The translations under genes were made by a program, and so were the position numbers. Positions 45,221 to 47,196 of a stretch of 57,336 nucleotides of DNA are shown piece by piece (the stretch's first letter is position 1; every line of letters begins with the position of its first letter). The notes beneath the pieces are model-generated. The model worked only from the letters and a program-made list of their open reading frames with translations. It had not been told where the DNA came from and did not search any database. Source of the stretch: a virus; the IMG/VR virus record IMGVR_UViG_3300028790_000006, positions 1 to 57,336 of that record, one strand, 5' to 3'.

Positions 45221-45514
45221 GCGTTCAGGAGTGGGACATCCACGGGCCGGCCGACGTCAGCTACACCCCCGACGAGGTGGCCCAGATTGCCCGGGCCGAG
45301 CAGCCGCACCAGGTGAACGGCGCTCGGCGCGCCGAGCGCCGTTCACCTGGTGCGGCTGCTCGGCGTCGGCGTCATGCCGACCGTGCTTCCGAAGTGTCGG
45401 GCCGAGCCGGACCCTTCGATCGACGAGATGGTGCGCGTCGGGGGCACGCTCACCCGCGAGGGCATCGCCTTCAATCAGGCGACCGGCCGGGACGAGTCAG
45501 GCCGAGGACGCTGA
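45217..45514 (+). pseudogene. Hypothetical gene broken by a perfect palindrome
   Basis: The ATG overlaps the previous stop, and the first 27 codons (WDIHGPADVSYTPDEVAQIARAE) read sensibly. Codons 27-49 lie in a 70-bp perfect palindrome. After it, sensible sequence (HLVRLLGVGVMPTVLPK, then EPDPSIDEMVRVGGTLTREG, ending at TGA 45514) continues in the +1 frame. The original frame reads on as Arg/Ala-rich nonsense to 45576. Either a foldback event broke the gene or the palindrome is an assembly error. The product is unrecognised. Confidence 0.55.
45295..45364. repeat. 70-bp perfect palindrome
   Basis: Two 35-base arms meet without a loop at 45329/45330, centred on GGCGCGCC. No mismatch occurs in the arms; pairing fails at 45294/45365. 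The right arm fits the coding frame of the downstream protein fragment, so the left arm may be its inverted copy. Confidence 0.9.
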
Positions 45515-45520
45515 CATTCC

Positions 45521-45589
45521 ATGATCGTCTACGTCTACCCAGCCGACGCCTACGGGTGCGGGTGTACTCGCGGTAGTATTGCCGGATGA
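45521..45589 (+). pseudogene. Orphan 5' copy of the downstream glycosyltransferase gene
   Basis: A 22-codon ORF begins with IVYVYPADAYGCG, the same residues encoded again at 46101-46145. After the GCG codons it diverges (CTRGSIAG) and stops in the ATG of the HNH gene. This is most easily read as the original gene start, cut off when the HNH gene inserted. Confidence 0.6.
45574..45585 (+). promoter_or_regulatory. Leaderless -10 box for the HNH-AP2 gene
   Basis: TAGTAT (45574-45579) lies 6 bases before ATG 45586. No convincing -35 or operator repeat is present, so the intruding gene seems to carry its own simple leaderless promoter. Confidence 0.45.
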
Positions 45590-46104
45590 ACGTGGCTCGC
45601 ATTCCGGTCTACCGAGGCGGCGAGGTCGCAGCCGTGGCCATCGTTGACAAGGCGGATGAGGCGCTGGTGTCGGCATGGCGCTGGCGCTTGCTTGGGAATG
45701 GCTACGTCATGGCTCAGCGGGGTGAGCTCCACATGTACTTACATCGGTTGATCGCAGGCGCAGGACCAGAAACGAGCGTGGATCACTGGAATCAGGACAA
45801 GCTAGACAATCGCTCGGTCAATCTGAGGCTCTGCTCTCGCAGTCAGAACGGCGGTAATCGTCAGCCTGACCGCAGGCGAGAGGGCACCAGCTCGCGCCAC
45901 AAGGGGGTCTGCTGGGACAGGTCGCGCGATCGCTGGGCCGCGTACATCCACGTCAACGGAAAGACGCGCGGGCTCGGCCGCTTCGACAGCGAGGACAGCG
46001 CCGCCGCAGCCTACAACGCGGCTGCGCTTGAAGCGTGGGGCGAGTTCGCGCGTCTCAATGATCTGAACGGGGGACCATTGCGCTCTGCATCTGAGCAGCC
46101 ATGA
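45586..46104 (+). CDS. HNH endonuclease with AP2 DNA-binding domain
   Basis: A 172-residue homing endonuclease. The HNH core is YLHRLIAGAGPETSVDHWNQDKLDNRSVNLRLC (in part), residues about 52-85. The AP2-type domain is SSRHKGVCWDRSRDRWAAYI, then GRFDSEDSAAAAYNAAA, residues about 100-165. It sits at the 5' end of a glycosyltransferase gene between two copies of that gene's first codons, as expected for a mobile HNH-AP2 gene. Its stop overlaps the second copy (ATGA). Confidence 0.87.
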   Translation: MNVARIPVYRGGEVAAVAIVDKADEALVSAWRWRLLGNGYVMAQRGELHMYLHRLIAGAGPETSVDHWNQDKLDNRSVNLRLCSRSQNGGNRQPDRRREGTSSRHKGVCWDRSRDRWAAYIHVNGKTRGLGRFDSEDSAAAAYNAAALEAWGEFARLNDLNGGPLRSASEQP

Positions 46105-47196
46105 CCGTCGTCTACGTCTACCCAGCCGACGCGTATGGCTGCGGGTTTCTACCGACTCGGGTTCCCCGCCCGGGCTGCGCGGGCGGCGGGCGCTGACGTC
46201 CGGCTGGTGATGCCCGCCGACCGGACCGGCATCGGCGGAGAGGTGGACAGTCGGACCGGCAAACTGGTCAATCTTTCCTACCCGCCCGACGCCGACGTCA
46301 TCGTGCTGCAGCGCGTCGCCATGGGCACCCTGGCCCAGGCCATCCCGCAGATGCGCGCGCGGGGGGTGGCCGTGGTCATCGACATGGACGATGACCTGAC
46401 GAAGATCGACCCCAACAACCCGGCGTTCTGGGGCTTCCACGCCAAGACCGGATCGCCGCTGCACAACTCGCGCAACGCCATGCAGGCCTGCCTCGACGCC
46501 ACCCTGGTGACCGTGTCGTCGCCGGCCCTGCTGCGTACCTACGCCCCGCACGGGCGCGGCCTGGTGCTGGAGAACCGCGTGCCGGCCGCCTACCTCGACG
46601 TGAAGCGGCCGCCGGCCGCCGGCGTCGCCTCGGTGGGCTGGGGCGGGTCGATCCACTCCCATCCGACCGACCTGGCCGAGCTGGGCCCGGCGGTGCAGCG
46701 GCTGGTGCGCGACGGCATCGAGTACTGGGGGGCGGGGCCCGACTACCACCTGCGCCCGGGCGACGACGGCCTGCGGCGGGCGCTGGGCGTCGAAGACGCG
46801 CTGGCCGACCAGGTGGCCACTACTGGCGACCTGGCCTTCGAAGAGTGGCCGATCGGCGTGGCCACGCTCGGGGTGGGCCTCGCACCGCTGGCCGACACCG
46901 GCTTCAACGCGGCGAAGTCCTGGCTCAAGCCGCTGGAGTACATGGCCCTGGGCGTGCCGTGGATCGGCTCGCCGCGCGCCGAGTACCGCCGCCTGCAGCA
47001 GCTGACCAAGGTGGGCCTGCTGGCCAAGGGGCCCGGCGACTGGTACCGCCAGGCCAAGGCGTTGGCGCTGTCACCGCACGCGCGAGAAGAGCAGGCCGAG
47101 CGCGGACGGGCCGCGGTGCGCGATCACCAGCTCACGTACGAGGCCTCGATCTGGCACTGGATCCACGCGTGGGAGCAGGCGGCCGCCGCTCGTTGA
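46101..47196 (+). CDS. Glycosyltransferase (GT4-like), restarted after the HNH insertion, needs a +1 shift
   Basis: Start ATG 46101 gives TVVYVYPADAYGCG and then runs out of frame at GGGTTTC (about 46143-46149). One base skipped gives FYRLGFPARAARAAGADVRLV and the rest of a GT-B type transferase of about 365 residues, with VAVVIDMDDDLTKID near residue 95, SVGWGGSIHSH near 180 and NAAKSWLKPLEYMALGVPWIGS near the C-terminal donor site. Without a shift, translation could restart at ATG 46135. The TTT C run could be a +1 slip, a real mutation or a sequencing error. Confidence 0.7.

What the first reader, a model, noticed from the sequence alone, without database searches (positions are those of the whole stretch)
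45521..46160. HNH-AP2 gene at the start of a glycosyltransferase gene with a synonymously recoded copy of the target codons
Codons for VYVYPADAYGCG occur at 45527-45562 and again at 46110-46145. The first 23 bases are identical; the following codons differ only at silent positions (GCC TAC GGG versus GCG TAT GGC). The HNH-AP2 gene lies between and its stop overlaps the second start. This suggests the element brought, or selected for, a replacement gene start that keeps the protein but alters the cleavage site.
Basis: partly seen in the sequence, partly recalled or inferred. Interest (0 to 1): 0.78.

Follow-up and report, generated by a model that had tools for sequence, protein, structure and literature searches.

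The report
Self-spreading nuclease carrying rewritten gene start
A virus gene-cutting element has jumped into the start of a sugar-transferase gene and brought its own reworded copy of that start, with a tiny reading-frame-breaking insert that the ribosome apparently has to slip or hop over; the same trick recurs in several related viruses, so it looks like a natural version of engineered 'home-and-rescue' gene drives.

Summary
In detail: an HNH-AP2 gene (45586-46104) sits between two copies of a glycosyltransferase (GT) start that differ only silently. A sister pair (L073 without, L075 with an HNH-AP2 gene; >99% identical on both sides) shows a 515-nt insert plus a GT start rewritten at 7 codons, all silent, plus one extra base creating an in-frame UAG. 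A second pair (L106/L271), another nuclease type at the same site (L087, L108) and two other target genes (L143, L145) show related layouts. Among 171 GT genes, 11 lineages carry frame-breaking inserts, all at codons 7-16; none was found in gene bodies. Most are UUU-Y +1 sites or 'codon-stop-N-same codon' hop sites. Best reading: a homing cassette carrying a cleavage-immune, translationally rescued start of its target gene. The sequence architecture is well supported; cleavage immunity and ribosome slippage are inferred, untested. Closest known: T4 mobA with the gene 60 bypass, fungal mitochondrial mORFs, engineered HomeR drives.

The parts
45521..45589 (+). Old GT start (copy 1), now a 22-codon mini-ORF MIVYVYPADAYGCGCTRGSIAG whose TGA overlaps the HNH start (ATGA)
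   Evidence: sequence; ATGATCGTCTACG matches the native start context (GTGATCGTCTACG) of L002-L007
45525..45563 (+). Direct repeat, copy 1 (39 nt)
45586..46104 (+). HNH-AP2 homing endonuclease gene (172 aa)
   Evidence: Pfam HNH_3 and AP2, phrog_99 HNH endonuclease 2e-36
46101..46149 (+). Replacement GT start (copy 2), MTVVYVYPADAYGCGF; its ATG overlaps the HNH stop
46108..46146 (+). Direct repeat, copy 2 (39 nt, 92%)
46146..46149 (+). Candidate +1 slip site UUU C (zero-frame next codon CUA); also in L002, L003, L004, L007
   Evidence: UUU_Y proneness from PMC5009743
46101..47196 (+). GT-B glycosyltransferase gene, read 46101-46148 then 46150-47196 (365 aa)
   Evidence: family alignment, phrog_7162 glycosyltransferase, model and Foldseek of the in-frame relative L005, purifying selection among frame-broken relatives
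46135..46137 (+). Alternative internal ATG in the body frame; would lack strand beta-1 and most of the Gly loop; absent in L003/L007

Best explanation
This is a homing cassette made of a nuclease gene plus a replacement start for the gene it invades. The HNH-AP2 nuclease is proposed to cut or nick uninvaded GT genes at the conserved Gly-loop codons (about residues 10-17). Recombinational repair from an invaded phage then installs the nuclease gene, which is translated by coupling to the old start, together with a second GT start. That second start encodes the same peptide with different codons and, in most cases, carries a 1-7-nt insert at the presumed cut site, so the cassette does not recut itself. 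The insert breaks the reading frame. The GT is made because the peptidyl-tRNA slips +1 on UUU-Y (window: GGG UUU C|UAC) or hops 5-7 nt from a codon followed by a stop to an identical or synonymous codon (UAU UAGG UAU; GGU UGAG GGC; GCU UAAC GCC; GGA UA GGA). SHOWN by sequence: duplicated or rewritten starts, the before/after pair, localised inserts, conserved GT bodies. INFERRED: the cut site, immunity from the changes, homing, slipping and hopping.
For: (1) L073/L074 versus L075: 99.6%/99.4% identical flanks, 515-nt insert carrying HNH-AP2, GT start with 7 silent codon changes plus 1 nt (CAC TTC CGG -> CAC TTT T AGG), rest of the gene nearly identical (7/17 vs 1/325, p 1.5e-9). (2) L106/L271: about 90% identical flanks, similar-sized insert, start with 7 silent changes and one Y>F, in frame. 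(3) Old and rewritten starts flank the nuclease also in L038, L108 (different nuclease type), L143 (VRR-NUC gene) and L145 (SNF2 helicase gene), where the old start is fused in frame to HNH-AP2. (4) Frame-breaking inserts in 11 GT lineages, all at codons 7-16; no split-frame match in GT bodies; lengths 1,1,1,1,1,4,5,7,7,7,7, all insertions, 10 of 11 being 1 mod 3. (5) All five +1 sites are UUU-Y; a stop directly follows the slip or take-off codon in 7 lineages (post hoc). (6) Nuclease-bearing GTs are frame-broken 5 of 8, others 9 of 163 (p 8e-5). (7) Purifying selection on frame-broken GT bodies (L003-L004 dN 0.047, dS 0.28). (8) L003, L007, L038, L087, L092, L097 have no ATG/GTG/TTG in the body frame near the start.
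Against: No cleavage, homing or translation data. Frame-broken starts without a detected nuclease gene (L002-4, L048, L088, L092/97, L159, L275, L285) must be explained as immune alleles or remnants after loss. L106 has the nuclease and no frame break; L055 and L188 have nucleases and in-frame GTs. The silent differences could simply be those of a diverged donor phage: two control pairs of intact GTs with about 93-95% protein identity and no nuclease show a similar start excess. L159 (CAC UAU UGAC CGC) and L108 fit no simple re-pairing rule. No stimulatory RNA structure stood out (z -1.3 to +1.0). The 15 cultured-phage HNH-AP2 genes examined show no convincing duplicated start.
Confidence: 0.6

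Rival explanations
1. Donor divergence only: the cassette came from a related phage whose GT start had drifted silently; the rewriting was not selected for cleavage immunity, and the second start is just the donor's copy carried along by repair (co-conversion).
For: Repair from a donor would import exactly this stretch; intact GT pairs L104/L281 and L200/L118 show comparable silent divergence of the start without a nuclease.
Against: Does not explain the recurrent frame-breaking inserts with stops at the same codons, nor their association with nucleases. L075's start keeps all 18 compared residues of L073 while 7 of 17 codons change.
Confidence: 0.2
2. Frame breaks are scars of imprecise repair after homing cuts, and the GT is dead or dispensable in those phages.
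For: Inserts sit at the presumed cut site; several broken loci carry a nuclease next door.
Against: No deletions among 11 lineages; strong length bias; bodies intact and under purifying selection across three diverged frame-broken relatives; L092 and L097 also keep the break and the open body at 82% identity.
Confidence: 0.12
3. The GT is translated from an internal start in the body frame (window ATG46135, MAAGFYRL...) and the upstream copy is a leader peptide; no ribosomal slippage is involved.
For: Body-frame starts exist in the window, L002, L004, L048, L075, L088, L275, L285.
Against: None near the start in L003, L007, L038, L087, L092, L097. The zero-frame peptide VYVYPADPYGCGF is conserved with mostly silent changes, and the strand it encodes is part of the predicted fold.
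Confidence: 0.15
4. Programmed +1 shifting or hopping in this GT family is a regulatory device of its own, and nucleases merely favour this conserved site.
For: Most frame-broken GTs have no nuclease next to them now (9 of 14); UUU C is shared by the window and three uninterrupted relatives.
Against: L075 acquired its frame break together with the nuclease; break and nuclease are associated (p 8e-5); close in-frame sisters exist (L073, L005).
Confidence: 0.2
5. Assembly or sequencing error in the metagenomic contigs.
For: All broken cases are metagenome assemblies; single-base inserts in short T runs.
Against: Same base in the window and three distinct phages (L002, L003, L004), 7-nt inserts with stops, none found in GT bodies across the whole set.
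Confidence: 0.05

Closest known systems
T4 mobA / gene 39-60 with the 50-nt translational bypass
   Same: HNH homing endonuclease next to a split target gene; a frame-breaking insert that the ribosome bypasses, take-off codon followed by a stop, landing on the same codon; the insert has been proposed to protect from nuclease cleavage (PMC5009743, PMC3014915)
   Different: T4 splits the gene into two proteins; here the target start is duplicated and rewritten so the gene stays whole. Inserts are 1-7 nt instead of 50, recur in many lineages, and come with at least two nuclease types. HNH-AP2 is not MobA.
Fungal mitochondrial mobile ORFs (mORFs) in atp6, atp9, cox2, nad3
   Same: A homing endonuclease element carries a replacement portion of the gene it enters; in Glomus atp6 the differences of one copy from its relative are all synonymous (PMC3630166)
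   Different: mORFs carry the gene end (C-terminus), belong to the LAGLIDADG/GIY-YIG families and sit in mitochondria; here it is the gene start, in phages, with frame-breaking inserts.
Engineered home-and-rescue (HomeR) gene drives
   Same: Homing nuclease element inserted into its target gene with a re-coded, cleavage-resistant rescue (PMC7968924)
   Different: Synthetic Cas9 drive in flies that rescues the gene end; here natural, in phages, at the gene start, with apparent translational recoding.
Aeh1 mobE in nrdA
   Same: Phage HNH homing endonuclease inside a coding sequence, gene function retained (PMC2988022)
   Different: That insertion yields two separate polypeptides; no replacement start.
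prfB-like / UUU_Y +1 frameshifting and synthetic 'stop-hops'
   Same: UUU_Ynn is reported as especially prone to +1 shifting in bacteria; matched codons around a stop allow hopping in synthetic constructs (PMC5009743)
   Different: Not tied to phage GT genes in the papers held; that review describes known natural uses of bypassing as few.

Membership tests
HNH homing endonuclease (HNH_3 + AP2) | HNH_3 nuclease domain and AP2 DNA-binding domain | tested here: met
   HNH_3 30.9 bits (cut-off 24.8); AP2 32.5 bits (cut-off 33.3, just under)
HNH homing endonuclease (HNH_3 + AP2) | Occupied and empty alleles of the same site in close relatives | tested here: met
   L075 versus L073/L074, L106 versus L271; for the window itself only 68-75% identical relatives are available
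HNH homing endonuclease (HNH_3 + AP2) | Site-specific cleavage of the empty allele and biased inheritance | not testable with these tools
   needs purified protein and phage crosses
[quoted passage not shown]
   Not met in the window, which is a +1 UUU C site. Met in relatives L038 (UAU UAG G UAU) and L048 (GGA UAG GA, overlapping); L088 and L285 have synonymous codons
T4 gene 60-type bypass | Take-off stem-loop and stimulatory nascent peptide | tested here: inconclusive
   no unusually stable RNA fold; nascent peptide not testable and only 7-16 residues long here
+1 programmed frameshifting (UUU_Y) | Shift-prone tetranucleotide conserved across divergent relatives with purifying selection downstream | tested here: met
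   window, L002, L003, L004, L007; L092, L097
+1 programmed frameshifting (UUU_Y) | Trans-frame protein detected | not testable with these tools
   needs expression or proteomics
Fungal mORF | LAGLIDADG or GIY-YIG endonuclease replacing the gene's 3' end in mtDNA | tested here: not met
   HNH-AP2 in a phage, replaces the 5' end
Self-splicing intron or intein | Excision joining the two flanking coding parts | tested here: not met
   copy 2 supplies a complete start behind the nuclease gene, and the nuclease has its own start and stop. Rfam intron models were not run

The most novel reading that the evidence does not exclude
Actinobacteriophages carry a class of natural 'home-and-rescue' drives, evolved with at least two different nuclease types, in which immunity of the rescue copy is obtained by silent rewriting plus a micro-insert, and the ribosome is made to slip +1 or hop 5-7 nt over a stop codon to keep the target protein. 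This would supply a natural set of short stop-hops and a general evolutionary route (homing pressure) to programmed recoding, of which T4 gene 60 would be one extreme case.
Probability: 0.45. Interest if true: 0.93.

Novelty: new variant of a known kind. Interest (0 to 1): 0.85.

Why it matters
If right, homing endonucleases and ribosomal recoding are causally linked: a selfish gene protects its own target copy by rewriting it and breaking its frame, and recoding is the price. That makes an old question testable, namely why T4 gene 60 has a bypass and whether short natural hops exist, using about ten natural replicates with empty-site relatives. It also gives a natural precedent for re-coded rescue gene drives, candidate cleavage-resistance alleles in the wild, and a warning that gene callers will miss the true start of such genes.

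Tried and rejected
Exact degenerate DNA scan for the window's start peptide in viral contigs: nothing. Scan for the frame-shifted motif: only the four contigs already found. Cultured phages: GT relatives are at most about 32-36% identical and none of 15 cultured HNH-AP2 loci shows a convincing duplicated start, so the pattern could not be shown in an isolate. Stimulatory RNA structure near the shift sites: no signal. Frame 'events' beyond residue 20 were set aside as alignment artefacts of a variable-length region (paired or poorly scoring), because the same genes give no split-frame match. The idea that copy 2 is the altered one in the window: not decidable from the window. L108 insert as a simple hop: no matching codon pair found. 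Phase variation: T runs too short and inserts fixed across phages. Literature for HNH-AP2 insertions with replacement starts or frameshifted phage GTs: nothing in the held papers.

Full report
WHAT IS THERE. The window is a whole IMG/VR virus record of 57,336 bases (completeness not given). At 45521 a GT start reads ATG ATC GTC TAC GTC TAC CCA GCC GAC GCC TAC GGG TGC GGG, then leaves the GT sequence and stops at a TGA that overlaps the ATG of an HNH-AP2 gene (45586-46104). That gene's TGA overlaps a second start at 46101: ATG ACC GTC GTC TAC GTC TAC CCA GCC GAC GCG TAT GGC TGC GGG TTT C TAC CGA.... The HNH_3 and AP2 domains are recognised by Pfam, AP2 just below its cut-off.

THE FRAME BREAK ALSO OCCURS WITHOUT THE INSERTION. 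Uninterrupted relatives L002, L003, L004 and L007 (72-75% identical protein, no HNH gene detected) carry the same TGC GGG TTT C TAY; L005/L006 (68%) are plainly in frame with TGT GGG TTC TAT. L003 and L007 have no usable start codon in the body frame near the start. The bodies are under purifying selection (for example L003-L004 dN 0.047, dS 0.28). UUU_Y is the tetranucleotide reported as especially prone to +1 shifting in bacteria (PMC5009743). A +1 slip from UUU to UUC gives exactly the family peptide ...GCGF-YRL.... In a sample of longer window ORFs, TTT is 16 of 233 Phe codons and CTA 20 of 680 Leu codons.

BEFORE AND AFTER. The cleanest evidence is in other phages. L073/L074 and L075 are >99% identical on both sides, but L075 carries a 515-nt insert with an HNH-AP2 gene related to the window's (58% over 147 residues), and its GT start has 7 silent codon changes and one extra base (CAC TTC CGG ATG becomes CAC TTT T AGG ATG, with UAG in the zero frame), while the following ~1,050 nt differ at 3 positions. 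Of 17 same-residue codons in the start 7 are changed, of 325 in the body 1. L106 versus L271 is a second, more diverged pair (7 silent changes, one Y>F, in frame; p about 0.06 on its own). L038 has the same HNH-AP2 family between two rewritten starts, the first with an in-frame TGA, the second reading CAC TAT TAG G TAT CGG. L108 has a different nuclease type (phrog_3377, 58% to the one in L087) between ATG CGC GTA CGT GTC TAC CCG GCT and GTG AGG GTA CGT GTA TAT CCC GCC. L143 and L145 show HNH-AP2 genes in other target genes (VRR-NUC, SNF2 helicase) with the old start fused in frame to the nuclease and a rewritten start behind it: MSAPRPLPGMG and RPDVLGELS, the latter changed at 7 of 9 codons. 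The L143 repeat exceeds its shuffled control; the L145 one does not by score, and is judged by its position at both start codons.

HOW COMMON. From five scans I collected 171 distinct, well-matched GT genes. Eleven lineages carry a frame-breaking insert, all within codons 7-16; a search for split-frame matches found none in the bodies. Insert lengths are 1 (five lineages), 4, 5 and 7 (four); there are no deletions; ten of eleven are 1 mod 3. The five single-base cases are all UUU-Y: window group, L092/L097, L075, L275, L087. L075 and L275 share CAC UUU U AGG and may have one origin. The longer ones mostly read as hop sites: UAU UAGG UAU (L038), GGU UGAG GGC (L088), GCU UAAC GCC (L285), GGA UA GGA (L048, where, as in T4 gene 60, GGA is followed by UAG). 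In these the re-paired reading gives the family peptide with no extra residue. L159 (CAC UAU UGAC CGC) and L108 do not fit this rule. A stop directly follows the slip or take-off codon in 7 lineages. Probabilities attached to this are post hoc and only indicative. Nuclease genes lie directly upstream of 8 GT genes; 5 of these 8 are frame-broken against 9 of 163 others (p 8e-5).

WHAT THE TARGET IS. An AlphaFold model of the in-frame relative L005 (pLDDT 89.7) places the break in the loop between strand beta-1 and helix alpha-1, at or next to invariant residues. Foldseek finds GT-B enzymes of the PimA/BshA/MshA kind. From general knowledge of these enzymes this loop contacts the donor phosphates; homing endonucleases often choose codons for such critical residues (PMC2988022). 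Starting at ATG46135 would remove the strand.

MECHANISM. My best account is a homing cassette with a cleavage-immune rescue. Shown: the architecture, empty and occupied alleles, silent rewriting, and site-confined inserts. Inferred: that the nuclease cuts at the Gly-loop codons, that rewriting and insert prevent recutting, and that the ribosome slips or hops. Frame-broken starts without a nuclease would be immune alleles or leftovers after nuclease loss. Two caveats. The silent differences could come from an ordinarily diverged donor, since some intact GT pairs show comparable start divergence. The frame breaks could have a regulatory role of their own.

COMPARISON. T4 mobA with gene 60 is the nearest functional parallel, and fungal mORFs the nearest structural one. 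Both differ in important respects (gene end versus gene start, split versus whole protein, 50 versus 1-7 nt). HomeR drives are the engineered equivalent. I found no description of this arrangement in the held papers; most subscription literature is not in that library.

Noticed in passing
window 45295-45364: Perfect 70-bp palindrome (35-nt arms, no spacer) inside a small gene whose frame appears to change there; assembly artefact or real inversion.
   Followed up: no
L118/L227 and L281, first 20 GT codons: In-frame GT starts with unusual codon wording (TGT GGC TCA TTT AGG; TGT GGA TCT TTC CGA) and no nuclease detected; possible silent cleavage-resistant alleles.
   Followed up: partly
L040 / L146, flanks of the HNH-AP2 gene: HNH-AP2 flanked by a ~22-bp near repeat of the upstream gene's end (GGAAAGGTSAAAGCAGCATGAG), i.e. 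a duplicated gene end in place of a start.
   Followed up: no
L188 2469-2951 and L055 2406-2957: A third kind of HNH endonuclease (phrog_826 in L188, AT-rich) directly upstream of in-frame GT genes: the GT start looks like a hotspot for several homing nuclease families.
   Followed up: partly
L075 2440-2464, L106 about 2436-2471, L038 5961-5991: Just upstream of the HNH start codon a short sequence (GGCTGCGTTTCGGCTAATATGGCC in L075) resembles GT codons for GCG-FRLIWP, possibly a relic of the cut GT site, with a promoter-like TAATAT.
   Followed up: no
L305 1251-1286 and 1884-1919 (Salmonella phage seszw): AGLTCQKQYESL / AGLMCEAQYNSL on either side of an HNH-AP2 gene: possible duplicated gene end in a cultured phage.
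   Followed up: no
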